From Tricholomella constricta (Eukaryota; Basidiomycota; Agaricomycetes; Agaricales; Lyophyllaceae), in contig JAACJP010000028.1 of the NCBI GenBank assembly GCA_013368375.1, positions 124,001 to 188,000 on the forward strand: a stretch of DNA of 64,000 nucleotides, written 5' to 3'. The translations under genes and the position numbers were made by a program. Below, one piece after another: positions 21,240-39,396 of the stretch; position 1 is the first letter of the stretch; each line of letters starts with the position of its first letter. Below the pieces are notes generated by a model that had not been told where the DNA came from, did not search any database, and saw only the letters and a program-made list of their open reading frames with translations.

Positions 21240-23040
21240 GAGCTGTGGACAAGTGGTCTCCTCTACCCACCACCACCCTCCACCACCTCCCCGCCACCAC
21301 CAACACCTTCCCTGGACCCCTCCCCACCAACAACAAGACCGAGCACGCTGCCAAACGGCGTGCTCGTTGTCTCGGATGTCGTCGAGCGCCCCTCCGCCTC
21401 TCAACCCGCTCCCCGTCCCTCCACCACCACCCACCACCACCCACCACCACCCACCACCTCCAAACAACGAGTGCGAGCGCGTTACGACCGCCCCGCCGCC
21501 TTGCGACCCGCTCCCCGGCCTTCCACCACCTCCCACCACCTCCCACCACCTCCCACCACCTCCCACCACCTCCCACCGCCTCCCCACCACCGCCTCCACC
21601 CCCCCTGGACCCCTCCCCACCGAAATCAAGACCGAGCACGCTGCCAAGCGGCGTGCTCGTCGACTCCGGCGTCGTCGACCGCCCCACCGCCTCTCGACCC
21701 GCTCCCCGGCCCTCCACCACCTCCCACCACCTCCCACCGCCTCCCCACCACCACCTCCACCCCCCCTGGACCCCTCCCCACCGAAATCAAGACCGAGCAC
21801 GCTGCCAAGCGGCGTGCTCGTCGACTCCGGCGTCGTCGACCGCCCCGCCGCCTCTCGACCCGCTCCCGGCCCTCCACCACCTCCCACCACCTCCCCACCA
21901 CCACCTCCACCCCCCCTGGACCCCTCCCCACCGACAACGAGTGCGAGCACGCTGCCAAGCGGCGTGCTCGTCGACTCCGGCGTCGTCGACCGCCCCACCG
22001 CCTCTCGACCCGCTCCCCGGCCCTCCACCACCTCCCACCACCTCCCACCGACTCCCCACCACCACCCCCACCTCCCCCAGGCACCTCCTCACCCACTCCA
22101 ATGACGAGCACGCTGTTTGGCAGCGTGCTCGTCGTCTCGGATGTCGTCGACCGCCCCGCCGCAAGTTGATGCGCCCCCCTGGTCCCCACCAACCCCCACC
22201 ACCCTCACCCACTCCGATGATGAGCACGCTGTTTAGCAGCGTGCTCGTCGTCCCCGGTGTCGTTGACCGCCCCGTCGCGACTCAACATGCCCCTCTGGGC
22301 CCCGCCGCAGGTCGACGCGCTCCCCGCCGCAGGTCGACGCCCCCCCGCTGCAGGTCGACGTGCCCCCCGCTGCAGGTTGACGCGCCCCCTGCCGCAGGTC
22401 GACGCGCCCTCCCCCCCCCCTCCCCCCCCACCACAATGCCGCCCCTCGACCCCTCCCCACACTTGGCAGCGTGCTCGTCGACTCCGGCGTCGTCGACTGC
22501 CCCGCCGCCTCTCGACCCGCTCCCGGCCCTCCACCACCTCCCACCACCTCCCACCGACTCCCCACCACCACCCCCACCTCCCCCAGGCACCTCCTCACCC
22601 ACTCCGATGACGAGCACGCTGTTTGGCAGCATGCTCGTCGTCTCGGATGTCGTCGACCGCCCCGCCGCAAGTTGATGCGCCCCCCTGGTCCCCACCAACC
22701 CCCACCACCCTCACCCACTCCGATGATGAGCACGCTGTTTAGCAGCGTGCTCGTCGTCCCCGGTGTCGTTGACCGCCCCGTCGCGACTCAACATGCCCCT
22801 CTGGGCCCCGCCGCAGGTCGACGCGCTCCCCGCCGCAGGTCGACGCCCCCCCGCTGCAGGTCGACGTGCCCCCCGCTGCAGGTTGACGCGCCCCCTGCCG
22901 CAGGTCGACGCGCCCTCCCCCCCCCCTCCCCCCCCCTCGACCCCTCCCCACATTGCCCAAGCCCAGCACGCCATGCAAATGGCATGCTCGTCGTCCCCGG
23001 CATTGTCGACCGCCCCGTCGCGACTCGACACGTTTCACAG
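21240..23040. repeat. GC-rich tandem repeat block with regularly spaced hairpins
   Basis: The plus strand is C-rich (CCACCACCTCCCACC runs). It is built from units containing GTCGTCGACCGCCCCGCCGC and a palindrome GAGCACGC...GCGTGCTC. Hairpins occur near 21341, 21634, 21794, 21944, 22106, 22222, 22612, 22728 and 22964. The best have perfect 10-bp stems with 5-nt loops (22106-22130, 22222-22246). A segment of about 300 bp is repeated with a 506-bp offset (from 22131 and 22637). The long proline-rich frames on both strands are products of composition and are not annotated as genes. Confidence 0.85.
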
Positions 23041-26535: not shown

Positions 26536-28429
26536 TTATCTCGAGGAGGAGTGCAAGATCGCCGTGATCTTGACCTATTTCCTCGAGAGTATACGAAAAT
26601 TTACATCGGTTTTGGGGCGGCGACGTTGTCCTTGTGCGAAGGTTGGGATTGCGATGACCTCCCGAGTGTTCAGGTCGGTAATGGTTATGATCGTATCGTT
26701 GGCGGATCTCGTTTTCACGTTAGAGCAAGTAAGTACGTTGAATGGCCAGCCGAGGAGTATATTGTATGCAGGGTTGCGAATGACGTGCATCTGTAGATAG
26801 AGCGTGATGTCGCCTATCGTACAGGGTACGTTTCGTGCTAGACCGAGCGACGGGTCGGTTGTTCCATTCGCTGATTGCATCTGTAGCACGATAGTTGGGT
26901 TGTATTTGACCCCTAGTCCATGGCAGACTTCTTCCGACATGGCGATGATCTGGCACCCGCTATCGACGATGCTTTCTATCTGTTCCTTTGCGTCGACCAT
27001 TATCATGATCGATCTGAGTGCATGCGATTCCATTGCGACGATCAGTCGGTCCAGGTGTTTGCCAGGTAGTAGTGTCTGGTAATACGTGTCGTAGATGTCG
27101 CCGGTGACTAGCACTCCGGGCGGTGGCGTCGCGTTGTCGCTGTTGGATTCGCAAGGGAGTGCGTCGAGTTCCTCAATGAATGCCGACGTGGGGACTTCTT
27201 GGTACACCGTTGTGAGGTTGCCGGCGACGATGCGCTTCGGTGTATTAGCTTCCCTAAACTTTCCGCGAACCTCTGGTGCTACTCCGCAGAGTTCCCGAAC
27301 CGTGACTGGTATGGTGGCGTCGAGCGCGCGTTCGAACAGGGCTGTTGATTTGGCCGGGTCTGTGATGGGCGCTTGTGTGCAGTACGCACTGTCGGCTTTC
27401 GCCTTCTCTGTAGCAGCTAAGTTTCGCATGGTCGGAGGGAGGTAACGGTTCTCAGGGATGTTAGAGAAAGGGTGTACCGGCGTCTGGTCGCTTGCATTGA
27501 CGTGGCGTCGGTCCTGGTACTAGGGATTAGAGGGATGTTGGACGGTAGCGGGGGAGCCTTGGCTTGGCCTTTCGTCGAGTCTTGGGCGGTTTGCGATATG
27601 GGCGCCGATTTGTTGGTCGGTGCGGTCCTTGGTCGGTCGGCGTCTGGGACGGTTTCGACTGTGACAGGTCGCTTTTGAGGTGCACAGCTAATAAGTTCTA
27701 CACCGTCGAATACCTCTTTCCTTGCACGCAGGGTGTTGAGTTCTCGTTCTAACACAATCATGCGACCTTCGATTTTTAGGTCATGATCGGTGACATCGTT
27801 AAATTGTAGAATTTCCAGCATCATGCTTTCGGTCGGGTTCGCGTTCGCTGATAGCTGTCCTGTCACCATTTGACCGGGGTTGCGCCTGTGCCATTCGTCC
27901 AGTTTGTCTTTTATGTATCGACCTGGAGTTCCCGCTGGTATGCGCGCACCACTTGGTAGGCCTATCTTGTTGTCGTCGGTTCTGCGGCAGCGTCCTTCGG
28001 TCGCGTATGCTTGATGTATGGGACAGTTGGGGATATAATGTCCTTCGCCACCGCAAAAGTGGCAGTTGTCATTAGGTGACTGGTTCGGTCGGCCGGCGTT
28101 GCCTCCTTTGTCTTGTCCCATACGTTGTATATGTTGCTCCAAGAGGTGGATTCTTTCATAGAGCTCTTCCAACTTGAGGGGCTGTCCCGTGCTAGGCGAC
28201 TTGGCCGCGCCTGTTAACGACCCGCTTGGCACGATCGTAACTTGTGTGGGCGCGCCCGTTGGCGCTTCCTGTCATTGGACGGTGTTTGTCCCGTGGAGGA
28301 TATGTTCAGCCGCAGCACGAACGGTTTCAGTGGCGTAGGGGTCATCGGGATGGTGGTTCAGGTTTAGGATCTCGAGCCTGTGATAGATCTTTGACCATAG
28401 ATCGGACTGGAACACGCGACGGAATCGGC
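26536..28429 (-). pseudogene. gag-PR: Gag C-terminal part and protease of element B
   Basis: The upper part (28429 to about 27480) encodes the end of the capsid region (DLWSKIYHRLEILNLN) and a coiled segment. A zinc knuckle CHFCGGEGHYIPNC follows at about 28050. The lower part, in another frame (27429-26575 and a little upstream), encodes VHPFSNIPENRYLPPTMRNL and the protease with SIVDSGCQIIAMSEEV and NILLGWPF. Two lesions are visible: an in-frame TGA near 28273 where the frame otherwise continues, and a frame change between about 27480 and 27530. The protease frame ends in TAG at 26575, just after a slippery site. This copy cannot make full Gag. Confidence 0.8.
26596..26602 (-). promoter_or_regulatory. 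-1 ribosomal frameshift heptamer AAATTTT (protease to RT in element B)
   Basis: The minus strand reads GTA AAT TTT CGT ... TAG, so A AAT TTT is in phase, eight codons before the protease stop. After a -1 slip the frame reads SYTLEEIGQDHG... and runs, once the Plavaka insert and one TTA are removed, straight into the RT frame (EISYTPTVISF). Confidence 0.75.
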
Positions 28430-28621
28430 TGTAACGGGCGTTACCGAATATGGTAGCGATCGTTGTTTGTCTTTGTTTATTTCTAAAGGTGCTGGCCATA
28501 TATAGCCAGCACCTCTGTATTATATAATCTTTAGACTTATACATACCTACATCTACACACAATCCAATCAGTGGTCGTGTTTAGTTTGGTGTGAACTCTT
28601 AAGTCTAACCACACCCTTACA
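28430..28621 (+). repeat. 5' LTR of element C (192 bp)
   Basis: The ends are TGTAACGG...CCCTTACA. A 10-bp perfect inverted repeat (AGGTGCTGGC, 28487-28496; GCCAGCACCT, 28505-28514) encloses the TATA-like loop CATATATA. Confidence 0.96.
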
Positions 28622-28677
28622 GTTTTTTAAACACCCTTACTTCAAGGGAACACCCCTAAAACATTTCAATTCCAAAA

Positions 28678-29199
28678 ATGTCCAACAAAAAGAAGACTTC
28701 GAAACCGAAGCCTTCTGACCAAAACCGGTCGGGATCCGTGGCGCCGGACAATCCGAAGCCGCGAGAAGAGAATCCACCGGGAAGTGGAGTCGCCGGGAGC
28801 GGCGACAGAGTGGAGCCTACGCGTGACGTGGCAAAGTCACACCCAGATGATAGAAACTATCATCTAGAGGACGAGCGCAGCAGCGCTCGACCTCAGAGCG
28901 CTATCTTGACAAGGCCTGTCAGTATCCGAGAAGGAGGCCCCCAGGGGGGACCCGGTTGGAGCGACCGGAAACCCAAAGAGGAACCCGTATCGGGCACCTC
29001 GCAGGAACGCCAGGGCGTGTTTCCTGCGCCCTTCGATAATATATCGAGGAGCTCAGTAAAGATGCGGGATGACGAACATGGTCACCCAGCAATATTTGGC
29101 ACCAGTGAACTCACTGATGTGCCCGCATCGCGTTCGTCAAAGATGATGTCGACCGCAGCCCGACGAAATCGCCGGGCTGAGAAGAAACCAGCGAAATGA
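28678..29199 (+). CDS. ORF0 of element C, basic disordered leader protein (173 residues)
   Basis: It starts at the first ATG after the LTR (context AAAAATGTCC) and ends KKPAK-TGA. It is rich in Lys, Pro, Ser, Asp and Arg, with no recognisable domain. It has basic ends (KKKTSKPKP; RRNRRAEKKPAK) and looks disordered. It is in the same reading phase as the downstream gag frame. The frame continues past TGA without another stop, and gag homology begins before the first downstream ATG. ORF0 may therefore be the N-terminus of a readthrough Gag rather than a separate protein. The alternative is that the TGA is a recent CGA-to-TGA mutation. Confidence 0.75.
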   Translation: MSNKKKTSKPKPSDQNRSGSVAPDNPKPREENPPGSGVAGSGDRVEPTRDVAKSHPDDRNYHLEDERSSARPQSAILTRPVSIREGGPQGGPGWSDRKPKEEPVSGTSQERQGVFPAPFDNISRSSVKMRDDEHGHPAIFGTSELTDVPASRSSKMMSTAARRNRRAEKKPAK

Positions 29200-32088
29200 G
29201 AAAGCAGCGGAACGCTGCCTTCGTCATCTGTGGTGGATGACCGTGATTTATTAGTGGAAAGCATAGTATTAAACATACGGATGTTTAGCAGGGACGGCAT
29301 TATGCCTCCCCGAGATGTGCTAGTTAATCTAGTAAATGACGCGTTTGAAAAATGCGTCGAAGCGACCGGGGGACAATCGGCCCTCCGAAAAGACCAGGAG
29401 ATAGTAGTAGAATCCATCGTTCTACAACTAAGATCGGGAAGCCGGAAGGGAGTAACTCCCTCCCGGGCACAGCTCAGCTCTCTTGTGGAAGAGGGGCTGA
29501 GGACGTATGATGAAGTGTTCGAGCAGGTGGAATCACCACTCGTACAGCAGGAACGCGAAGAACCATACCGCCAGGTGGTAACCCAGCGGGATGTAGCCTT
29601 ACCATCGTTAGATACGATGGAAGCCGTAAACCAAAGTTTGCGGCAGCCTCGCCAGCAAGACGAGACAAGCTCGCAGGCGCGCGGGAGACACGCGGCCTGC
29701 GAACGGGCGATGAACCCACCCAAGGCGGAACCAGCAGCGACTTCATACAGTCGGACCTGGGATTTATCAGGAGAAGGCCCGACGTCATATAAACGAGGGC
29801 CCTCGTGCGACGACGAAATCATTACGCACTGCGCAGAACTGCCTAGTGGGCGGGTTACCGAGGCGGTGAGAGGTAGCGGACGCAACAGTGTTGCGACCAC
29901 AAGGCCGCATCCAGACCCACAACTGGAGGCGGCGCACCCAGGCGGATACGGTGGAGAGGAGGACAACTCGGAAGCCGAGGAGAACTCGGAAAGCGAGTTC
30001 GAAGGAGGGCACACTAATGCGCCGCCTGCACCAGTGAGACCGGAACATGGGTCCGGTGGGCGAGGAACGACGACGCCACGCCCGACTCACGCTAGCCACC
30101 CAACGGGCGGCTGGGATGGACGGAGTAATCCTCCGAACAACCCACAGTACTACGGGGGAATACGACTACCTAGTCGTACTCCGGGGGTACACTATGGAGG
30201 AGGCCAGCAGCACTTGGTAAATCCACAACGGCCGGTAAGGTCGTTCGGGGCGAGCGGACTGCAGCGCCAAGGAGAGTATCTCCTGAAAGTGCATGGTCGA
30301 TACCATGCAACGATTGATGAAAAGTTGGATAGCATTATAGCTATGCAACAGGGAGGAGCGAGGCCTGGAGCACTGCGAGTGCCCATGCCCGAGGAATATA
30401 ACGGGGCGCCAAGTATGGAAGAATTCGATACATGGCTATATAGTGTACTCCGCTGGATGGAGATCAACCAGCTTGGGGGACAGGACCGGGAGCGAGAGCG
30501 AATCTCGTACGCAGGGATGTACCTCAAGGGTGCCGCCGCTGTGTGGTTTACGGACAACGTCGACGGTATTCACCGGCGACGTCGAGACTGGACGTTCAAG
30601 GACGTCATTACCGGATTATATGACCGGTTTATTCATGAAGCATCATTGCAGGATGCTTATGTAGGGTTCGAACGCGCTGTGTATAGCGCAGATGGCGGAA
30701 TAAATGAATTCTTCCATCAATTAAAGAGATATGCGGAACGGATGGTGATGCCACCCGACCCGTATACATTCAAACGGCGGTTTATGACCGGTATCCCAAG
30801 ATACCTGCGCAAGGAAATCTTGAACAGGGGATTCACGGCGGAGACGTCGCGAATGCGAGAAATACTCGAAGCCGGGCTCAAAATTGAGCAGGCAAACCGA
30901 GTACTTCGCGGATACGATGATTATGAGGCAGTAGCCCGAAAATCATCGGAAAAGAAGGATACCGCTGTAGCGCGGGCTCCAACGAGAACGTATGAGGGTG
31001 GAAGCCGACCACCCTACAAGCCGACAGGTCCGGGAGGACAACGGTCAGAACCGAAATCGGACGGTAAGAAACCGCCAGCGACACCTGTGAAGGGCGTAGA
31101 CGGAGGGACGAAGCCCTCAGGCGAGAAGCGGCTAGCCTGCTTCGATTGCGGCAGCCTGGAGCATTTTGCGAGAAGCCGCAAGTGCCCCAAGAACAAGAGC
31201 AGCACTGCGCGACTGAACGCGGTGCGGGATATCGTGGACGATACGTCGGACACGGAAGTGGCTGGACGCAGCCACGATGTACGATGCGGCGGCGAACGAC
31301 CAGCAGAAACGGCGCCCGTAGAACCAGAAGAGAGCGAGACGCCCCTTCTGGGGGAGCAATATGAGTCCGAAGGGGAGGACTATGCGTTGGAACAGTACGA
31401 GGAGTACGGTTCCGACGACGACAGAGACACAGTCGAACGACTGTGTTTCGGGAGGACCCTCGAGGATGACTCGGGGGATGAGGGACTTCCACTATTAGTG
31501 GAAGTCAGCGATAGTGAGTCGGAAGACGAGGGAGAGGCCGCACAGATGTTCGCGGCGAATACAGCGGCTGGGACGGGGACGGGAACCCGACCCATTGTGG
31601 TTAAGAAGTCTACACGACTTCTTAAACGTCCAACGCGCAAAGCGCAGGAGCGCCAATGCTTTACGGCATTGGTAGAAATTAATGGGCTGAAGGCTTTCAC
31701 CCTATTTGACTCGGGATGCACGGCGGAGGCTGTGTCCCCCGAATTTGCCAAAGTGGCGAAAATGAAAGTGCACCAATTGGAGGAAGTGGTGCCACTACAG
31801 TTGGGAACGAAGGGTAGTCGATCAGTGATCAACTACGGAACGACAGTCCCAATGAAGTATGAGGCGATAGACGCGCAAGTTTACTTTGATATAGTAAACT
31901 TGGATAAATACGACGCCATTATTGGCGTCGCATTGATGAGGCAGCTGGAAATCGAACTGGATTTCCGGCATAACTGTGTTCGGATAAGCGGGAGTCCTGC
32001 TCCGACGTTTACGGTCGAGGAGGAGACCCGAGAAATGGCGCAACGAAGCGCATTGAGGCGCAGCGACGCAGGGTATGGTCAGGAATGA
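29200..32088 (+). CDS. gag-PR: Gag-protease of element C
   Basis: The frame is open from the ORF0 stop to TGA at 32086-32088. The first ATG is at 29281, but a duplicated motif (VESIVLNIRMFSRDG / VESIVLQLRSGSRKG) already starts near 29254. Domains, with residues counted from 29230: a disordered charged region to about 365; retrotransposon Gag (about 368-590, with RVPMPEEYNGAPSMEEFDTW, YLKGAAAVWF and MTGIPRYLRKEIL); a variant zinc knuckle CFDCGSLEHFARSRKC near 636; an acidic segment; and an aspartic protease with TLFDSGCTAEAVSPEF near 826 and DAIIGVALMRQLEIELDF. It supplies the capsid and processes the polyprotein. Pol follows in the same phase after TGA CTA. Confidence 0.88.
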   Translation, partial: ESSGTLPSSSVVDDRDLLVESIVLNIRMFSRDGIMPPRDVLVNLVNDAFEKCVEATGGQSALRKDQEIVVESIVLQLRSGSRKGVTPSRAQLSSLVEEGLRTYDEVFEQVESPLVQQEREEPYRQVVTQRDVALPSLDTMEAVNQSLRQPRQQDETSSQARGRHAACERAMNPPKAEPAATSYSRTWDLSGEGPTSYKRGPSCDDEIITHCAELPSGRVTEAVRGSGRNSVATTRPHPDPQLEAAHPGGYGGEEDNSEAEENSESEFEGGHTNAPPAPVRPEHGSGGRGTTTPRPTHASHPTGGWDGRSNPPNNPQYYGGIRLPSRTPGVHYGGGQQHLVNPQRPVRSFGASGLQRQGEYLLKVHGRYHATIDEKLDSIIAMQQGGARPGALRVPMPEEYNGAPSMEEFDTWLYSVLRWMEINQLGGQDRERERISYAGMYLKGAAAVWFTDNVDGIHRRRRDWTFKDVITGLYDRFIHEASLQDAYVGFERAVYSADGGINEFFHQLKRYAERMVMPPDPYTFKRRFMTGIPRYLRKEILNRGFTAETSRMREILEAGLKIEQANRVLRGYDDYEAVARKSSEKKDTAVARAPTRTYEGGSRPPYKPTGPGGQRSEPKSDGKKPPATPVKGVDGGTKPSGEKRLACFDCGSLEHFARSRKCPKNKSSTARLNAVRDIVDDTSDTEVAGRSHDVRCGGERPAETAPVEPEESETPLLGEQYESEGEDYALEQYEEYGSDDDRDTVERLCFGRTLEDDSGDEGLPLLVEVSDSESEDEGEAAQMFAANTAAGTGTGTRPIVVKKSTRLLKRPTRKAQERQCFTALVEINGLKAFTLFDSGCTAEAVSPEFAKVAKMKVHQLEEVVPLQLGTKGSRSVINYGTTVPMKYEAIDAQVYFDIVNLDKYDAIIGVALMRQLEIELDFRHNCVRISGSPAPTFTVEEETREMAQRSALRRSDAGYGQE

Positions 32089-32141
32089 CTACCGCGGGAA
32101 GGCAGAGTGCGCGTGGTCGACGATGTAGACGAGCGACCACG
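32086..32141 (+). promoter_or_regulatory. Putative stop-codon readthrough element (UGA-CUA plus stem-loop)
   Basis: The gag-protease stop is GAA TGA CTA. UGA followed by CUA is one of the best-known leaky contexts in eukaryotic recoding. The downstream frame is the same and is open through pol, with no ATG near its start. A perfect 8-bp stem (CGTGGTCG 32112-32119; CGACCACG 32134-32141) with a 14-nt loop begins 23 nt after the stop. The alternative is a simple CGA-to-TGA mutation in a formerly single gag-pol frame. Confidence 0.6.
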
Positions 32142-35100
32142 GTATCGGGGACTGGCAACGAGCGAGCCTCTGATAGTGTGTAACGACGAACGGTCGGACA
32201 CAGACGGGAGGGGGTTGGGCATAACCCCAGAAGAGAAGCCGAGCGAAGGCACGCGGACGTCGGAAGGGCGACGGCGAGTGAGGATCGAGGAGGAGGAGGA
32301 CGTGGATGCGCCCACTCCGGGAACGGGATTACCGAGGTCATTCCCGGTAATCATGGAGGACGACGATGTGTTGTCGACCGAAGACATTGAAAGAATGGTG
32401 GACGAAGCACCCGACATTCTTAGAAGCGGACGAAGCCGCTACCACACACTGAAGGATCTGCGCGAACTTGAGGAGATCGTACAGGAATTTACAAGGACGC
32501 GGTACCCGGAACGGGTACCACGGGAAGCAATACGTGCGGTATTCCCGGTAATACCGGAAGTGGATGATCCGTTTACGGATGAGCACATCAGCGAGTCGCT
32601 GCGTGCGGTGACGGAGAGACACCAAAAGCGGGTAGCTCAGATGGGCGCCCTTACTGAGGAGGATATCCCGAGATTGCGGGACGCATGGATGGAGTCCTGT
32701 AAGGACATCATGAATGGGGTACCGGAGGAACTACCTCTGGTACGAGGGGTTAATCACCACATTAATCTCGTCGACGATGACAAGCAGTACCATTACCACT
32801 TGCCACGGTGCCCGGATTCACTTTGGACACAACTGATGGAGAAGATCGCGCGGTACACACGCGCGGGATGGTGGGAGTCGGTGCAGACGTCACAAGCTGC
32901 ACCAATGCTTTGTATACCAAAGAAAGACGGCCGACTGCGAACAGCAGTCGACGGTCGGAAAAGGAATGCGAACACGATTAAGGACGTGACGCCGTTCCCG
33001 GACCAGGACCAGATCCGATTGGATGTGGCACGAGCAAAAATTCGATCAAAAATCGATTTTTCGGATGCATACGAGCAAGTACGCGTCCATCCGCCGGACG
33101 TGCGCAAAAGCGCGTTCGCAACTGTGTTTGGCACATTCGTGAGCCACACAATGCAGATAGGGGACTGTAACGCGCCAGCGACGTTTCAGAGAGTCATGAC
33201 GATGATATTTCGAGACTTTATCGGAATATTTCTACATGTATACTTGGACGACTTGTTCGTATACAGCGCTACGGTAGACGAGCACGAGAAGCATCTCAAG
33301 CTCGTTTTTGACAAGATAAGGGAGAACAAGTTCTACCTTAAGAAGGAAAAGTGTGAACTTTACTCCGATAAAGTCGATTGCCTAGGGCATGTAATCGACG
33401 ACAAGGGATTGCACGCGACAGCGGACAAGATGGCGCGTATCCGCGAATGGCGGAGACCGCGAAACTACGGCGATATCCAGAGATTTCTGGGTCTTGTACA
33501 GTATCTGGCGCACTTTCTGCCAGATATATCGTCGTATACGACACCACTGTCAGCAATGACACAGAATGGACAGGCCTTCGCATGGAGGCCCATCCACGAG
33601 TCATGCTTTCAAGCAATTAAGGACGTGTGTTGTAAAACGCCTGTCCTGGTGCCATTGGACCATAGCAAGGATGAACCCATATGGGTTATCTGCGACGCGT
33701 CGGTATCCGGCGTGGGCGCAATGTACGGACAGGGACCGACATGGCAGACATGCAGGCCGGCGGGATTTATGTCCCGCAAATTTACGGATGCTCAAAGACA
33801 CTATCGTGTGTTCGAGCAAGAGACGATAGCGATACTAGAAGCCCTCCTTAAGTGGGAGGATAAGCTTATAGGGTACCGTATACATGTGGTAACCGACCAC
33901 AAGGCACTGGAGTTCTTCCAGACGCAGAGGCGGCTATCTAGCCGCCAGACGAGATGGATGGAATATCTATCTCGCTTTGACTTTGACATTCGTTATGTCA
34001 AAGGATCACTAAATAAAGTAGCGGATGCGCTGTCCAGATATCACGAGAGTGATGTCTGGGATGATAGATTTATGATGAACGACTACGTTAACGCAGACGT
34101 TCGACTCGACCCAAGACACGACGACTTGCCGTGGGATAGGGTACGAGAAGTGGTGGATAAGGTCGTGGAACGACAGATCCAGCAAAAAGCGTTCACGCAG
34201 GAGCACAGCAGAATAGCGGTGCTCCGGGATTTGGTGCAAGAGCGAGATGTGAGGGCGGCAGAGCTAGCGGCCGCCGCCGAGAACGGCGACGCGGGGGAGT
34301 CGGTCGCGAACAGTGCGGACGACCCCACCGTATTTCAGTCTCGGGAACGCGGAGCGGACCTGAGAGCGACAGTCGAGAACGGGGAGGGGAATGAGATATT
34401 CCTCTCCGCGGTGAAAGCGGGGTACGAGACGGACCCGCTGTTTAAAAAGATAGTGAGCGCACCCGCTCAGCATCCATCCTTTCGGGTAAAGGAAGGACTG
34501 GTGTGGGGGAAGAATAGAGGCGGAGAGGAGGTGCTATGCATCCCCTCCGCAAAGAACGGGGCACAATCACTGCACGGGCAAGTAATTGAACGTGCGCACC
34601 GAGTAGTGGGCCACTTCGGTCCACAACGTACCGCCGACTATGTGCGACGGTGGTACTGGTGGCCACGACTTCAGCGTGAAGTCGAGGCGTTTTGCGCGTC
34701 CTGCCAGACGTGTATAACGACGAAAGGAGAGTACCGAGCACCGGCGGGGCTGGTGCACTCGTTACCGATACCCACGAAGCCATGGGAGTCGATCGGGATG
34801 GACTTTGTAGGTCCGTTCCCGGAAGTGGATGGATACAACTACTTGTGGGTAGTGGTATGCCGGATGACGTCCCAGGTGCACCTAGTACCACTAAATACGA
34901 GAACGACGGCGTCACAGCTGTCGTGGATTTACATGAGGGAGGTAGTGCGACTGCACGGTCTCCCGAGCTCGATCGTATGCGACCGGGACCCCAAGTTCAC
35001 ATCCAAGTGGTGGAAGGAACTACACCGACTGATGGGGTCGACGCTATTGATGTCTACAGCGTTCCATCCTCAGACGGATGGTGCCACAGAGAGGGCGAAT

Positions 35101-35913
35101 CGGTCGATCGCGCAGATCATCCGATCGTGTATACGACCAGACCAGAGGGACTGGGTCGTAGCGCTGCCGATGGTCGAATTCACAATTAATTCGAGTATTA
35201 GCGCGGCAACGGGGTTCGCCCCGTTTGAGGTTAACCACGGTTATATGCCAACGGTGATGACGAAGATCGACCCGGGGACGAAAGCGCCACCGGGGGTTCA
35301 GGAGTTCGCAGCGAATGCGCTGCGAAACATGGCAGCGGCGCACGACGCGATTATCGCGGCACGCACATTTCAGCGACACCACGCGAACATGCGGAGGAGA
35401 CCTGATCCAGTGATAGGTAAGGACGACCTTGTCTATCTATCAACGGATAACCTGTCCCTACCGTCCGGGAGGGCGGGTAAACTACTACCTAAATACGTGG
35501 GCCCGTACAGGGTCCTCGAGGTGTTTCCGGAGACGTCCAACTATGTGTTGGAGTTACCAGAAGCTCTTAGGAAGCGCAGGATACACCCGCGTTTCCATAT
35601 ATCGAGGATTCGCCCACATCAGGCGAATGACGACGCTCTGTTTCCTAACAGAGCGACGCCGGAGGCCTATGATTTTGGGGCCCCCGACGAAACCAAATAC
35701 TATGTCGACAAAATTGTCGGGCATCAGTGGACCGGGAAGGAGGTGTCCTTCCTGGTCAAGTGGACAATGGGCGACTCTACATGGGAGCCGCTCAAGACAT
35801 GTGAGGAGCTCGAAGCGCTGGACAGCTACCTCGAACTCATTGGGGTGAAGGACTGGACAGCCCTTCCCCGGCGGGCGACGGTGATGACGCGCGCTAAGAC
35901 GGGGGCGCGATGA
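32089..35913 (+). CDS. pol: Pol of element C: reverse transcriptase, RNase H, integrase, chromodomain
   Basis: About 1,270 residues, in phase with gag-protease through TGA. After an acidic linker come the reverse transcriptase (APMLCIPKKDGRLRTAVDGR, then VYLDDLFVYS near residue 380 counted from 32107) and RNase H (VICDASVSGVGAMYGQG, VVTDHKALEFF, DALSRY). The integrase has an HHCC finger (HRVVGHFGPQ..., CASCQTC; about 830-870) and a catalytic core (GMDFVGPF, CDRDPKFTSKWW near 957, QTDGATERANRSI). A C-terminal chromodomain lies around residues 1196-1248 (VDKIVGHQWTGKEVSFLVKW, DSTWEPLKTCEELE), predicting targeting to methylated histone H3 chromatin. The frame is intact. Its TGA (35911-35913) overlaps the ATG of the third ORF. 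Confidence 0.93.
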   Translation, partial: LPREGRVRVVDDVDERPRYRGLATSEPLIVCNDERSDTDGRGLGITPEEKPSEGTRTSEGRRRVRIEEEEDVDAPTPGTGLPRSFPVIMEDDDVLSTEDIERMVDEAPDILRSGRSRYHTLKDLRELEEIVQEFTRTRYPERVPREAIRAVFPVIPEVDDPFTDEHISESLRAVTERHQKRVAQMGALTEEDIPRLRDAWMESCKDIMNGVPEELPLVRGVNHHINLVDDDKQYHYHLPRCPDSLWTQLMEKIARYTRAGWWESVQTSQAAPMLCIPKKDGRLRTAVDGRKRNANTIKDVTPFPDQDQIRLDVARAKIRSKIDFSDAYEQVRVHPPDVRKSAFATVFGTFVSHTMQIGDCNAPATFQRVMTMIFRDFIGIFLHVYLDDLFVYSATVDEHEKHLKLVFDKIRENKFYLKKEKCELYSDKVDCLGHVIDDKGLHATADKMARIREWRRPRNYGDIQRFLGLVQYLAHFLPDISSYTTPLSAMTQNGQAFAWRPIHESCFQAIKDVCCKTPVLVPLDHSKDEPIWVICDASVSGVGAMYGQGPTWQTCRPAGFMSRKFTDAQRHYRVFEQETIAILEALLKWEDKLIGYRIHVVTDHKALEFFQTQRRLSSRQTRWMEYLSRFDFDIRYVKGSLNKVADALSRYHESDVWDDRFMMNDYVNADVRLDPRHDDLPWDRVREVVDKVVERQIQQKAFTQEHSRIAVLRDLVQERDVRAAELAAAAENGDAGESVANSADDPTVFQSRERGADLRATVENGEGNEIFLSAVKAGYETDPLFKKIVSAPAQHPSFRVKEGLVWGKNRGGEEVLCIPSAKNGAQSLHGQVIERAHRVVGHFGPQRTADYVRRWYWWPRLQREVEAFCASCQTCITTKGEYRAPAGLVHSLPIPTKPWESIGMDFVGPFPEVDGYNYLWVVVCRMTSQVHLVPLNTRTTASQLSWIYMREVVRLHGLPSSIVCDRDPKFTSKWWKELHRLMGSTLLMSTAFHPQTDGATERANRSIAQIIRSCIRPDQRDWVVALPMVEFTINSSISAATGFAPFEVNHGYMPTVMTKIDPGTKAPPGVQEFAANALRNMAAAHDAIIAARTFQRHHANMRRRPDPVIGKDDLVYLSTDNLSLPSGRAGKLLPKYVGPYRVLEVFPETSNYVLELPEALRKRRIHPRFHISRIRPHQANDDALFPNRATPEAYDFGAPDETKYYVDKIVGHQWTGKEVSFLVKWTMGDSTWEPLKTCEELEALDSYLELIGVKDWTALPRRATVMTRAKTGAR

Positions 35914-38351
35914 ATGGCGTCGAGACATACGGCCCGCGAGGGCGCAGTCACGGGACCGAACAGGTCTCAGAGTGGGAAGAAAAAACCGGCATAAGCCGAG
36001 CGTCACAAACACGACAGTGTGACGTGTTGAGATTTTTTCTTCAGCACCATCAACCGATGGAGCGACCACCGCGCGATGACCGACCAGACAGGCCGGACCA
36101 CCCAATGGGTGGTCCCGATAACAACGACAACGCGAGGGGCGGAAGAGAATTCCGTCCCAGAGACAGCCGAAGGGATGGGGAGCGTGACCGAAAGCGGTCG
36201 CGATCCCCAACGAGAGGACGTGAACGGTCCCGAGAGAGGGATAGCGGTGGCAGATACCTGTCGCCGCAACGAGAGAGTGGGAGTGGCCGCGCGCGAGAGC
36301 GCTCACGGTCAGTGGAACAAGCAGCGAGCGCAAGCGAGCTGAGGTGGACCTACAATGAGCAGGTCAACCTGATCAGTCACCCGAGAGGGTGTACGACGTG
36401 CACAGCGTATGCAGCGCACATGCTGATGGATTCCATCACGGAAGCGGAGGGCTTACAGAGAGCCCACCGCAAGCAGAAGGAACATATTAAGAGCGCCGAC
36501 TTGGCAGCTCTTAAGGTTGAGAGGGAGGACTTGCGCAACAAGTTGCGGTCCTTCGATACGGATTATCGACGCTTGTGCGCCGATTATGATGAGCTTCGCG
36601 AGCAGTTCTATGCTCGCGAAAACGAGTGTAGGGAGCTGCGCGGGCAGTTGGAGGCTCGCGACAAGGAAGATGGAGGCGGGAAGCGAAAGCGCTCCCGCAC
36701 CGACGACGGTGAAACCATCGCGTCGTACGAGGCAGGACCGACATCGTCGAGACTGTCTCCAGCGAGTCAGCTGCCGGTCAGACTACCGGCAGAACATGAG
36801 GATACAGACGCCAGTCATGGCGACTATATGGATATCGACGTGGGGACGTACCCGACCCCTGTCGAGGCGTACGGGGTATCCGCGCCCGTCGGGGCGCAGA
36901 ATACGACGCCGGCCATTCGTAGGCCGGCGCCAGTCAACCTGGTGGCGCCGTTGGGGTCTACGGACCACATCAGGCTACCCGGCGGGGCTCATCTGAGCGC
37001 CGTCGATCATACGCTCCGATTCGGGAAGCGAGCGCAACGCGCCGCCGAGAACGAGCGAATGGGGCTGCCTCCCCCGCGGATGGGGATGCCTGCAGGAGGA
37101 ACCGGGATGCCCGCGTCAGCGGGAGAGCTGGAGGCTTGGATAGCCGCAGCCAATATCCCAGGCAACGAGTTTGCGTTGCAGCGAATGAAAGCATTCGTTG
37201 CAGTCTGCCAGCAGATTGCAGACGCCAACCGCACGGAGGTGATGCGGTCGGCAATGACACAATGGCGACTCCCTACATGGGCGAAGGCAAAGCAGGCTGC
37301 CGTGACGGCGAAGTACGCCGTGGGCAAGGGGCCGAAACCTGTGAAGGTTCCGAACCCGAACTATGGTGACCCAGCGGAGACCTGGGCAGCATGGTTGTAC
37401 CGGAATCGGGCAACCATCATTAACAATGGCCGACCCCAGTATCCGGGGACGGTAGTAGGACCTGGGGGAGTGTCCTTGACGCACATTCGCGGCATGAACA
37501 TCATCATGCCACGCGCACCGAGGCGTGTCGCCGACCTGGCGGCAATGAGGAATCGAACTCGATTCCTCCAAATGGCCTGTGAGTTGATGGGTACAGTGAA
37601 TCTGTACCGCAACACGCTGCAATTGCTCGGAAGGAGTGTTGCAGAAGTCGAGACAGTCGAGCGGTTCGCACAGCCGCTCGACAATGTGACGATGGAAGAC
37701 ATCGCCGCATTTTTCGCTCAACAAGGAGTAAGCGTCGAACGTTTCGTCGACGCTCAGCCTTTCGGGATGGAGTGGCTCCGGGATTACCAGGGCGGCCACA
37801 CCGAGGATCCCGAGGCCAGTGCCGTGTTTTCACGGATGGCCAACTATGCCTTGACCCAGCATGACTGGACTCAAGACACGTTGCCGGGGGAAGCGACGTG
37901 GTGGTATCCACCATCGCGACGAACTAACGTGCCAGTAGCTGGCGCGAGTGGAGTATCGACGATGTCGATGTCCAGTATAGCAGGGTCATCGGCCGTAGGG
38001 TCGGTGACCGCGTCAAGAACGCCGTTGACGGTGGCACACCAGTTGACGGCGGGAGTCCGGGCGGCCCTGAACTATGGGTCATCCGAGGCCGGACGCTCGG
38101 GGTCAGGCGCGGGGCCGTCGGGAAGTGCGACGACCTCAGGAGTAGCAACAGCGGCGGCGGTATCGGCGCCCACACCAGGTCTCGGGGCTGGGGTGGGCAG
38201 TGTAAGCGAAGGGCCACCCGCAAACGCGGGGGGGCCCAGTGACCAGATGCAGGGGACTGGCGGAGAGGTGCCAGACGACCCCATGGACGGCTCGGTCTCA
38301 GGGCGAGCACCGTCGGGGTTGGAGGACGGCGAGGTGGAGGGCGCGGCGTGA
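35910..38351 (+). CDS. Third ORF of element C in env position (813 residues), unknown function
   Basis: Its ATG overlaps the pol stop as ATGA, the arrangement used for stop-restart coupling. Residues about 75-135 are Arg/Ser/Asp-rich (RDRKRSRSPTRGRERSRER), like an SR-protein RS region. Residues about 175-250 form a charged coiled coil (EREDLRNKLRSFDTDY, ENECRELRGQLEARDKED). A basic patch GGGKRKRSR follows. Residues about 400-640 look globular (ELEAWIAAANIPGNEFALQR, MTQWRLPTWAKAKQAAVTAK, HIRGMNIIMPRAPRRVADLA). The C-terminus is Gly/Ser/Ala-rich and acidic. There is no signal peptide or membrane segment, so it is not an envelope protein. It could bind RNA, chromatin or the splicing machinery. 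The frame is intact over 2.4 kb, which argues for selection. Confidence 0.85.
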   Translation: MNGVETYGPRGRSHGTEQVSEWEEKTGISRASQTRQCDVLRFFLQHHQPMERPPRDDRPDRPDHPMGGPDNNDNARGGREFRPRDSRRDGERDRKRSRSPTRGRERSRERDSGGRYLSPQRESGSGRARERSRSVEQAASASELRWTYNEQVNLISHPRGCTTCTAYAAHMLMDSITEAEGLQRAHRKQKEHIKSADLAALKVEREDLRNKLRSFDTDYRRLCADYDELREQFYARENECRELRGQLEARDKEDGGGKRKRSRTDDGETIASYEAGPTSSRLSPASQLPVRLPAEHEDTDASHGDYMDIDVGTYPTPVEAYGVSAPVGAQNTTPAIRRPAPVNLVAPLGSTDHIRLPGGAHLSAVDHTLRFGKRAQRAAENERMGLPPPRMGMPAGGTGMPASAGELEAWIAAANIPGNEFALQRMKAFVAVCQQIADANRTEVMRSAMTQWRLPTWAKAKQAAVTAKYAVGKGPKPVKVPNPNYGDPAETWAAWLYRNRATIINNGRPQYPGTVVGPGGVSLTHIRGMNIIMPRAPRRVADLAAMRNRTRFLQMACELMGTVNLYRNTLQLLGRSVAEVETVERFAQPLDNVTMEDIAAFFAQQGVSVERFVDAQPFGMEWLRDYQGGHTEDPEASAVFSRMANYALTQHDWTQDTLPGEATWWYPPSRRTNVPVAGASGVSTMSMSSIAGSSAVGSVTASRTPLTVAHQLTAGVRAALNYGSSEAGRSGSGAGPSGSATTSGVATAAAVSAPTPGLGAGVGSVSEGPPANAGGPSDQMQGTGGEVPDDPMDGSVSGRAPSGLEDGEVEGAA

Positions 38352-38523
38352 GGGGCGGGACGACAGTACCGCCCGCGAAAAAAAAAAAAAAAAAAAATTT
38401 CAGACATATAAAAGTATATGTCTATAGCCATAGAGAACACGATGGTGGACTTACACAAGTCTACTATCCAAACAACGGAATTGGGGATAGATCGAGCCGG
38501 GGGCTCGATCTAGAGGGGGAGAG
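38352..38523 (+). promoter_or_regulatory. 3' untranslated region of element C: A-run, two hairpins, polypurine tract
   Basis: An uninterrupted run of about 20 A lies at 38378-38397. A 9-bp hairpin follows (AGACATATA/TATATGTCT, 38402-38423), then an 11-bp hairpin (TAGATCGAGCC/GGCTCGATCTA, 38488-38512). The purine tract AGAGGGGGAGAG (38512-38523) abuts the 3' LTR and is the expected plus-strand primer. Confidence 0.75.
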
Positions 38524-38715
38524 TGTAACGGGCGTTACCGAATATGGTAGTGATCGTTGTTTGTCTTTGTTTATTTCTAAAGGTGCTGGCCATATATAGC
38601 CAGCACCTCTGTATTATATAATCTTTAGACTTATACATACCTACATCTACACACAATCCAATCAGTGGTCGTGTTTAGTTTGGTGTGAACTCTTAAGTCT
38701 AACCACACCCTTACA
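38524..38715 (+). repeat. 3' LTR of element C (192 bp)
   Basis: Identical to the 5' LTR except for one C-to-T difference (38551). It includes the 10-bp TATA-enclosing inverted repeat at 38581-38608. TCGGC follows directly. Confidence 0.96.
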
Positions 38716-39396
38716 TCGGCGGTCGCGTTCATTTATCGAAAGTCGGTTTTTGCTGACAAGGAATTGGGTAACAGAAAGGAACTGTCGGTAATATTCCCCG
38801 AGATCGCTATTCGACTGGATCCCGAGTCGGTGTCGTTCTCTGATCAGGTGGTCGAGGTCGGCCATTGAATACTTTCTTTCCTCGCTTGCGCCTGGGTAAA
38901 GCGCCATTATCGCTTTTCGCCAATCGTCGTGTGTGGTACTGACTGCGAACTCGTCAAGTTGCTCCCATAGGTCAGCGGTATTGATGTCGGTGTATCGCGT
39001 AGTGTGCATTTTCTTCTCCTGTTCGTCTACGACGTTACACTCGATGAAGAGATGATTTAAGTCCGAGAAATATCGGCGCAGTTCGCGCACGCGTTCGTGC
39101 ACGAACATCAGCGCCGAGCTTTGTCCGCGTGCGGGCATCGGTTTTACAATGATCGGTGGTTGTGCCATGATAGATGTTGTTGGTTTCGGAAGAGGGGACG
39201 GTGAGGGGGAATACAATGGCGAGGGGGAATCTGAGGTGTCTGGGGTCGTGGGCGATAGAGGCGGGAGTCTAAATCCTACTCCTTGATCGGTAGTAGGAGG
39301 TTCCGATGTAAAGGGGTCGGAAGCTGGGTTGGTTTGAACGGTCGGTTCGGGGAACGGTGTTTGATCGGTCGGGGTAGGCGACGGTGGTGTCGACAA
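38716..39396 (-). CDS. gag: Gag N-terminal part of element B (continues at 28429 beyond element C)
   Basis: It starts with ATG at 39396. Residues 1-80 are Pro/Ser/Thr-rich. The capsid-type region follows (SSALMFVHERVRELRRYFSD, TRYTDINTADLWEQLDEFAV, KAIMALYPGASEERKYSMAD, YRQFLSVTQFLV). The frame runs to the TSD. After removal of element C and one TCGGC it continues ERDRRFRRVFQSDLWSKIY, so the insertion point is confirmed at codon level. Confidence 0.85.

What the first reader, a model, noticed from the sequence alone, without database searches (positions are those of the whole stretch)
28430..38715. A complete retrotransposon whose coding sequence is saturated with short perfect hairpins
Element C carries perfect inverted repeats with tiny loops all along its length. 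They run through LTR, gag, protease, RT, integrase, third ORF and 3' UTR without breaking any frame. Stems of 9 bp or more with loops of 9 nt or less, found by eye: 28487 (10 bp), 28845 (9), 31427 (9), 31484 (10), 31601 (10), 31876 (10), 33981 (9), 35305 (9), 36095 (10), 36595 (10), 37548 (10), 37656 (9), 38402 (9) and 38488 (11). Seven- and eight-bp stems are commoner still (30162, 30291, 30638, 31258, 31911, 31947, 32501, 32537, 32932, 33929, 34666, 36771, 36907, 37591, 37731). A uniform-base model expects about 0.35 stems of 9 bp or more with such loops in 10.3 kb (10,286 x 9 / 4^9). Neighbouring elements A and B show no such pattern to the eye. Possible causes (inference): selection for genome-wide RNA structure affecting packaging or silencing, or template switching by its reverse transcriptase that turns near-palindromes into perfect ones.
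Basis: partly seen in the sequence, partly recalled or inferred. Interest (0 to 1): 0.93.

Follow-up and report, generated by a model that had tools for sequence, protein, structure and literature searches.

The report
Retrotransposon RNA packed with hairpins
A fungal jumping element and its relatives carry protein-coding sequence whose RNA is predicted to fold into small hairpins along its whole length, about as strongly as the most structured RNA viruses known, probably because the folding helps the RNA survive or be packaged.

Summary
Element C (28430-38715) is a Ty3-type retrotransposon with 56 perfect hairpins of 7 bp or more and 16 of 9 bp or more (loops 0-10); dinucleotide shuffles give 5.1 and 0.24, and codon-preserving shuffles do not explain it. 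All four families sampled of its clade in this 44-Mb fungal genome (C, E, D, F) are highly structured; two control Ty3 families are far less so. On the virologists' MFED metric they score 21.6-26.1%; SARS-CoV-2 has 15%, the published vertebrate-virus record is 23.4%. Of 63 hairpin sites, 46 are confined to one family. Of 48 double changes in stems 27 keep pairing, against 3-12 of 43-60 in slid controls. In C lineages fixed changes gain hairpins 2.0-fold and lose them 0.57-fold relative to chance; young shared changes look random. Best reading: weak, pervasive selection for sense-RNA structure (GORS-like), for RNA shielding or packaging. Against: C and E show equal excess on both strands; D branches show no gain excess; clear sense bias is shown only in F. 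Template switching is less likely, not excluded.

The parts
28430..28621 (+). 5' LTR, 192 bp, TGTAAC...CTTACA; includes a 10-bp hairpin at 28487
   Evidence: direct repeat; 1 difference from the 3' LTR and flanking TCGGC duplication
28678..29199 (+). first open stretch of the gag frame (173 aa), ended by an in-frame stop; same frame as 29230-32088
   Evidence: one longer open frame lies there in family E (L040:134-3673)
29230..32088 (+). gag (Ty3 capsid-like, CCHC zinc knuckle) and aspartic protease frame
   Evidence: Ty3_capsid and zf-CCHC_6 are below their curated cut-offs, RVP_2 above
32107..35913 (+). pol: RT, RNase H, integrase (H2C2, rve, SH3_Tf2-1)
   Evidence: rve is below its curated cut-off, the others named are above
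35910..38351 (+). third ORF, 813 aa, arginine/serine-rich N-terminal part, no database relative found
38524..38715 (+). 3' LTR
31427..31446 (+). hairpin, 9 bp, loop 2
31484..31506 (+). hairpin, 11 bp, loop 1; in E copies one stem pair and the innermost pair are not Watson-Crick
31601..31625 (+). hairpin, 10 bp, loop 5; in 8 of 10 copies of subfamily C
31876..31902 (+). hairpin, 10 bp, loop 7; three pairs made on the C branches by changes in both arms
33929..33946 (+). hairpin, 8 bp, loop 2; a G-C pair of C is A-T in E copies (compensatory)
33981..34003 (+). hairpin, 9 bp, loop 5; a stem of 8 bp or more is kept in 9 of 10 C, 2 of 2 C93, C90, C86 and 6 of 6 E copies
36595..36620 (+). hairpin, 10 bp, loop 6; a G-C pair of C is T-A in C93 (L020) and E (L024)
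38488..38512 (+). hairpin, 11 bp, loop 3, between ORF3 and the 3' LTR
28430..38715 (+). whole element: 49 hairpins of 7 bp or more with loops 3-10 up to 38523, mean spacing 208 nt; 29 of 29 windows of 350 nt have MFED above 5%

Best explanation
The sense RNA of this Ty3-type lineage is under weak but pervasive selection to fold into many short, local stem-loops (genome-scale ordered RNA structure, GORS-like). No single hairpin matters much. Each gained hairpin is slightly favoured and each lost one slightly disfavoured, so hairpins turn over between families while total structure stays near or above that of the most structured RNA viruses. Shown: the excess, its restriction to small loops, its presence in all four families sampled of this clade, its near absence from two control Ty3 families, compensatory change, and raised gains with reduced losses in the C lineages. 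Inferred: that the sense RNA is what is selected, and the benefit. The likeliest benefit is hiding the 10-kb RNA from host RNA silencing or decay (the genome holds Argonaute/Piwi-, RdRP- and Dicer-type sequences); compacting it for packaging is second.
For: Codon-preserving nulls: stems of 7 bp or more are 6-16 times expectation in the C, D and E ORFs tested, and 2.5 (pol, within the range of the shuffles) and 5.4 times (ORF3) in F. Sense-strand folding-energy excess 16.6-22.4% in ten ORFs of C, D, E and F against -0.4 to 5.7% in ten control loci, which are seven near-copies of one family and three close loci of another. GORS metric (350-nt windows, dinucleotide shuffle): C 23.6, D 26.1, E 22.0, F 21.6; L003 1.9, L070 8.0 +- 3.0 (7 windows), window 40-60 kb 4.6. 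Sense over antisense in F by 6.8 +- 1.4 points, in D by 3.2 +- 1.7, same direction under codon shuffles. Excess only at loops up to about 15-20 nt; inner pairing 0.31-0.33 at loops 3-5 against 0.45-0.71 at loops 6-10, as for physical hairpins with a minimum loop. 27 of 48 unique double changes keep Watson-Crick pairing against 4/44, 12/43, 3/60 and 3/52 when slid. Fixed C-lineage changes, n=1038: gains 35 against 17.4 expected, losses 35 against 61.7; young shared polymorphisms, n=88: 2 against 1.3 and 6 against 6.9. Shared and fixed changes fall on unpaired sites more often than matched random changes (0.43-0.54 against 0.37-0.40). RNAi-type sequences in the genome.
Against: In C and E the folding excess is equal on both strands (differences -1.4 +- 1.5 and 0.7 +- 1.1 points). 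Fixed transitions in stems show no significant tolerance of G-U over A-C (odds ratio 1.12, p 0.42), although stems carrying G-U are somewhat more enriched than those carrying A-C (91 against 19 expected, 85 against 27; summed). The D2/D3 branches (n=259) show no excess of gains (5 against 4.3 at 7 bp, 5 against 8.4 at 6 bp) and no clear loss depletion at 7 bp (21 against 23.0; at 6 bp 23 against 35.6). Singletons of C copies, thought to be post-insertion mutations, show both fewer gains (1 against 3.0) and fewer losses (6 against 11.2) than matched random changes, so the control is not perfectly neutral. No RNA probing data were seen for these elements, and no function was tested.
Confidence: 0.62

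Rival explanations
1. Mutational: the reverse transcriptase (or another polymerase) switches template within nearly palindromic stretches and copies one arm from the other, so near-palindromes become perfect; purifying selection only filters what breaks proteins. No benefit is needed.
For: Strand symmetry in C and E; residual mismatch types near random, GT 20, AC 13, other 62; the process is documented in yeast genes (PMC8604942, passages) and proposed for Nematomorpha (PMC6649704, passages). Singletons are mostly transitions (158 of 178), so post-insertion mutations do not test RT errors. One of 5 multi-change gains lies in one arm, and one of 6 recent clusters is a compensatory pair change in a 5-bp stem of one copy, L011.
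Against: Of 17 hairpins with newly made pairs on the C branches, 12 need one change and 4 of the other 5 changed in both arms. None of 6 recent same-carrier clusters makes a stem of 7 bp or more, and one destroys a 7-bp stem. One-mismatch stems are in great excess, 65 against 2.1, where conversion should leave few. Hairpin losses are depleted to 0.57, which needs efficient repair as well. Family F has a sense-strand bias.
Confidence: 0.2
2. Selection acts on single-stranded cDNA or on DNA hairpins rather than on the sense RNA.
For: Equal excess on both strands in C and E; no significant G-U tolerance.
Against: Family F, and marginally D, favour the sense strand; no precedent known to me (recalled, not searched).
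Confidence: 0.08
3. The hairpins are discrete, repeated recognition sites (for example dispersed packaging signals for Gag or the ORF3 protein).
For: Spread over the whole element, mean spacing 131-266 nt.
Against: No dominant loop motif, closing pair or tetraloop in 196 hairpins of 4 sequences; 46 of 63 hairpin sites confined to one family.
Confidence: 0.07
4. Chance, base composition, codon usage or tandem repeats.
For: None found for element C.
Confidence: 0.01

Closest known systems
Genome-scale ordered RNA structure (GORS) of positive-strand RNA viruses (HCV, pegivirus, coronaviruses)
   Same: Excess folding energy throughout coding sequence, consecutive short stem-loops, positions poorly conserved between relatives, paired sites less variable (PMC7642675, abstract and passages)
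   Different: Here the carrier is an LTR retrotransposon in a fungus; MFED of 21.6-26.1% is near or above the published vertebrate-virus record of 23.4%; C, D and E are rich in perfect Watson-Crick stems of 7-12 bp; no strand bias in C and E
Coding palindromes of Nematomorpha mitochondrial genes
   Same: Perfect inverted repeats embedded in protein-coding sequence with dynamic gain and loss (PMC6649704, abstract and passages)
   Different: There arms reach 284 bp and imperfect repeats are not in excess, which the authors read as conversion; here arms are about 7-12 bp and imperfect stems are in great excess
Template-switch homogenisation of short inverted repeats in yeast genes
   Same: Short arms and spacers in coding DNA (PMC8604942, passages)
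   Different: There clustered multi-nucleotide changes on the arms; here mostly single changes, in either arm, and 6 recent clusters none of which makes a stem of 7 bp or more
RNA structure of yeast Ty3
   Same: Ty3-type genomic RNA with local folds; a well-folded core covers about 19.4% of it (PMC11381356, passages)
   Different: No comparison with shuffled sequence was seen in the passages read, and MFED of yeast Ty3 was not computed here, so how Ty3 compares is open

Membership tests
GORS | Folding energy clearly below composition-matched shuffles across the genome | tested here: met
   MFED 23.6 / 26.1 / 22.0 / 21.6% in C / D / E / F; 107 of 107 windows above 5%; also under codon-preserving shuffles
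GORS | Many consecutive, locally paired stem-loops | tested here: met
   9.7 hairpin loops per 350 nt against 7.0 in shuffles, mean pair span 48 against 79 nt in C; weaker in F: 7.5 against 7.3 loops, span 53 against 72
GORS | Positions and pairs poorly conserved between relatives | tested here: met
   46 of 63 sites with stems of 8 bp or more are in one family only; C and E share 2 of 17 each; D shares 4 of 24 with any other
GORS | Paired sites less variable than unpaired sites | tested here: met
   Fixed changes in stems of 5 bp or more: 0.17-0.18 in the C, L022 and E lineages against 0.22-0.28 of sites in C; only 0.23 against 0.25 in D; more unpaired hits than random
GORS | Structure specific to the sense RNA | tested here: inconclusive
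   Seen in F (6.8 +- 1.4), marginal in D (3.2 +- 1.7), not in C or E
GORS | Genome of a positive-strand RNA virus, linked to persistence | tested here: not met
   The element is an LTR retrotransposon; it looks and perhaps works like GORS but lies outside the group in which GORS was defined
Template-switch (quasi-palindrome) correction | Changes confined to one arm and arising together | tested here: not met
   4 of 5 multi-change gains involve both arms; 0 of 6 recent clusters makes a stem of 7 bp or more; small samples
Nematomorpha-type coding palindromes | Long perfect arms without excess of imperfect ones | tested here: not met
   Stems up to 12 bp; one-mismatch stems 65 against 2.1
Ty3-type (Metaviridae) retrotransposon | LTRs, gag-PR, RT-RNase H-integrase order, target duplication | tested here: met
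   priming site not identified
Rfam RNA families | Match to a known structured RNA | tested here: not met
   0 matches at gathering score in window 28000-39000

The most novel reading that the evidence does not exclude
Ordered structure along the whole sense RNA is an ancient adaptation of an agaricomycete Ty3 clade: retrotransposons, not only RNA viruses, evolve GORS, here at a level near or above the known viral record, as protection of their RNA against host silencing or decay.
Probability: 0.35. Interest if true: 0.9.

Novelty: new variant of a known kind. Interest (0 to 1): 0.8.

Why it matters
GORS was described for persistent RNA viruses and its purpose is still open. A retrotransposon lineage with the same trait, in a fungus whose genome holds RNA-silencing genes and also unstructured Ty3 families, gives a natural contrast for testing what pervasive RNA structure is for. 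If the mutational rival is right instead, this would be a reverse transcriptase that rewrites near-palindromes across a whole element, which would also be new to me.

Tried and rejected
Composition and codon usage: rejected by dinucleotide and codon-preserving nulls, on stem counts and on folding energy. Loop motifs or regular spacing as dispersed signals: loops are A-rich (0.35 against 0.27) but without a dominant motif; spacing CV 0.79-1.04. Codon phase of C hairpins: 18 / 12 / 11, weak. Strand test by residual mismatch types: near random. Strand test by fixed transitions in stems: no significant G-U tolerance. Unpolarised one-sided changes gave G-U 279 against A-C 185, with slid controls at 1.0-1.2 to 1, but those counts repeat the same events and I do not lean on them. 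An upper limit on stem length (one stem of 12 bp and none longer, loops 3-12, in C, D, E and C93) is only suggestive; predicted helices reach 13 bp in E. DNA from other species: no relatives confirmed in viral contigs or genome contigs; the protein search (848 relatives at E 1e-3 or better, 120 listed, candidates capped) brings no DNA. ORF3: no relatives at E 1e-3 (candidates capped), no Pfam family above its cut-off. Literature: no report of GORS in a retrotransposon among the 5, 3 and 0 papers returned (listings and abstract starts only; 32 papers, 20 listed; 21, 20 listed; 29, 20 listed) likewise gave none by listing. One search is an earlier version on the middle segment only; its E singletons (n=26) gave 0 gains and 3 losses. 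One search is the redundant version of the covariation count.
Full report
WHAT IS THERE. The window lies in a 44.1-Mb genome of 118 contigs. The named relatives among the 120 listed for the pol protein are agaricomycetes (Mycena chlorophos, Phanerochaete sordida, Phlebia brevispora, Trametes species; the class is recalled), so the host is taken to be one. Element C, 28430-38715, has 192-bp LTRs that differ at one position and is flanked by a TCGGC duplication. It has a gag-protease frame, a pol frame with RT, RNase H and integrase, and an 813-aa third ORF without a relative found. The gag frame of this copy carries an in-frame stop at 29197-29199.

THE OBSERVATION. There are 56 stems of 7 bp or more and 16 of 9 bp or more with loops of 0-10 nt, against means of 5.1 and 0.24 and maxima of 11 and 2 in 200 dinucleotide shuffles. 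With loops of 3-10 and shuffles that keep each protein and its codon usage, 15, 15 and 11 stems of 7 bp or more in the three ORFs stand against 1.4, 1.6 and 1.8. Pooled over C and six related loci, the enrichment is confined to loops up to about 15-20 nt and is gone beyond 30. Pairing one step further in is 0.31-0.33 at loops 3-5 and 0.45-0.71 at loops 6-10, so the stems behave like physical hairpins with a minimum loop.

RELATIVES IN THE SAME GENOME. A DNA search with a 1.2-kb piece of pol found ten copies at 99-100% including the window's own, four longer ones at 86-93% (L019-L022), a family E at about 84% and a family D at 68%, besides fragments (only the best candidates are scored). A family F was found by protein search (59%). 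10-kb stretches of D, E and C93 hold 70, 41 and 37 stems of 7 bp or more against 4.2, 3.7 and 3.4; F holds 17 against 3.6. In F pol the count, 4, lies within the codon shuffles (maximum 5), in F ORF3 it is 8 against 1.5. Of 63 hairpin sites of 8 bp or more in the middle segment, 46 occur in one family only; C and E share 2.

CONTROLS. L001-L008 are copies of one other Ty3 family (95-100% alike) and hold 2 stems of 7 bp or more in all against 9.9 expected. L070-L072 are close loci of a third family (87-98%): 6, 2 and 6 stems against 1.6, 1.5 and 1.2, but little sense-strand folding excess (3.0, 2.0 and 2.9%). So there are two control families, not many. In one FastTree tree of 597 columns with 11 of the listed relatives, C/E and D/F fall on two branches of one clade that also holds the Mycena, Phanerochaete, Phlebia and Trametes relatives, and both control families lie far outside. 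The trait is therefore old in this clade or arose twice (inference).

FOLDING ENERGY. In 350-nt windows with dinucleotide shuffles, the kind of metric used for GORS, C scores 23.6%, D 26.1%, E 22.0% and F 21.6%; all 107 windows exceed 5%. L003 scores 1.9%, L070 8.0 +- 3.0% (7 windows) and 20 kb of the window outside C 4.6%. Published values are 7-9% (abstract) or 7.5-10.7% (text) for HCV, 15% for SARS-CoV-2 and 23.4% for the most structured vertebrate virus (PMC7642675, abstract and passages). That the NDR shuffle used there is comparable with the dinucleotide shuffle here is recalled, not checked. With codon-preserving shuffles and 150-nt windows, excess expressed as a share of the native energy, the ten C, D, E and F ORFs give 16.6-22.4% and the ten control loci -0.4 to 5.7%.

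STRAND. F shows a clear sense-strand bias (21.6 against 14.7, difference 6.8 +- 1.4), D a marginal one (3.2 +- 1.7), C and E none. Residual mismatches in near-perfect stems are close to random types. Fixed transitions in stems do not significantly favour those that leave a G-U pair (odds ratio 1.12, p 0.42). This is the main evidence against a purely RNA-level reading.

EVOLUTION. Changes were polarised on three separate alignments of C copies with C93, L021 and E as outgroups and a local-identity filter; truncated copies count only where they align. Stems of 7 bp or more, observed against expected from matched random changes (all): fixed changes in C lineages (n=1038) 35 gains against 17.4 and 35 losses against 61.7; private changes of L022 and E (n=553, E unpolarised) 13 against 8.4 and 18 against 32.2; D2/D3 (n=259) 5 against 4.3 and 21 against 23.0, so no effect there; young changes shared by several C copies (n=88) 2 against 1.3 and 6 against 6.9; singletons (n=177) 1 against 3.0 and 6 against 11.2, fewer of both. 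By folding energy singletons are close to random (+1.09 against +1.21 kcal/mol), fixed changes on the C99 branch are not (+0.09 against +0.69). P values (1e-4 and 2e-4 for the first class) treat changes as independent. Gains and losses are equal in number in the C lineages, as at equilibrium, and the ratios would fit weak selection with a scaled strength near 1 (inference). Counting each event once, 27 of 48 double changes at stem pairs keep Watson-Crick pairing, against 4/44, 12/43, 3/60 and 3/52 in slid controls.

MUTATION OR SELECTION. Template switching would copy one arm onto the other in one event. Of 53 hairpins of copy L014, 17 have pairs made on the C branches; 12 needed one change, and 4 of the other 5 changed in both arms. 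Of 6 recent clusters of changes none makes a stem of 7 bp or more; one destroys a 7-bp stem and one, in L011, is a compensatory pair change in a 5-bp stem. Imperfect stems are in great excess (65 against 2.1), whereas the Nematomorpha authors took the lack of imperfect repeats as the sign of conversion (PMC6649704, passages). Gains raised and losses depleted together among older changes fit selection; a repair-like conversion at each reverse transcription could imitate this, and the shared class is small.

FUNCTION. Nothing here tests it. The genome holds Argonaute/Piwi-, RdRP- and Dicer-type sequences, so silencing is a plausible pressure. Short stems that hide the RNA without forming long duplexes would make sense; packaging of a 10-kb RNA is the main alternative. 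Discrete signals are unlikely because no loop motif stands out.

NOVELTY. Searches for GORS or folding energy with retrotransposons listed no such report in the library held. I file it as a new variant of a known kind: GORS-like structure in an LTR retrotransposon.

Noticed in passing
window 35910-38351: Third ORF (813 aa) with an arginine/serine-rich N-terminal part and no database relative found; by eye the ORF3s of families D and F share blocks with each other, and F shares a C-terminal block with C.
   Followed up: partly
window 29197-29199: In-frame stop in the gag frame of this copy; one long open frame lies there in family E (L040:134-3673).
   Followed up: no
window 21387-22915: Tandem arrays with periods of about 161, 116 and 22 bp; units hold an inverted repeat (GAGCACGCTG...-type), which accounts for the cluster of 9-13 bp stems there.
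   Followed up: partly
L016 and L018 (near alignment columns 271 and 1396): Small deletions that remove part of a hairpin in single copies, perhaps skipping by the reverse transcriptase.
   Followed up: no
L070, L072: A distant Ty3 family shows a mild excess of stems of 7 bp or more (6 against 1.6 and 6 against 1.2; its third locus L071 2 against 1.5) but little folding excess.
   Followed up: partly
L011, alignment segment 'five' columns 1298 and 1303: Two changes in one copy that replace a G-C by an A-T pair in a 5-bp stem, a possible single compensatory event.
   Followed up: partly
window 28622-28660: No stretch of 8 nt or more just after the 5' LTR is complementary to the LTR, so self-priming of the Tf1 type (recalled) is not evident; the primer was not identified.
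   Followed up: partly
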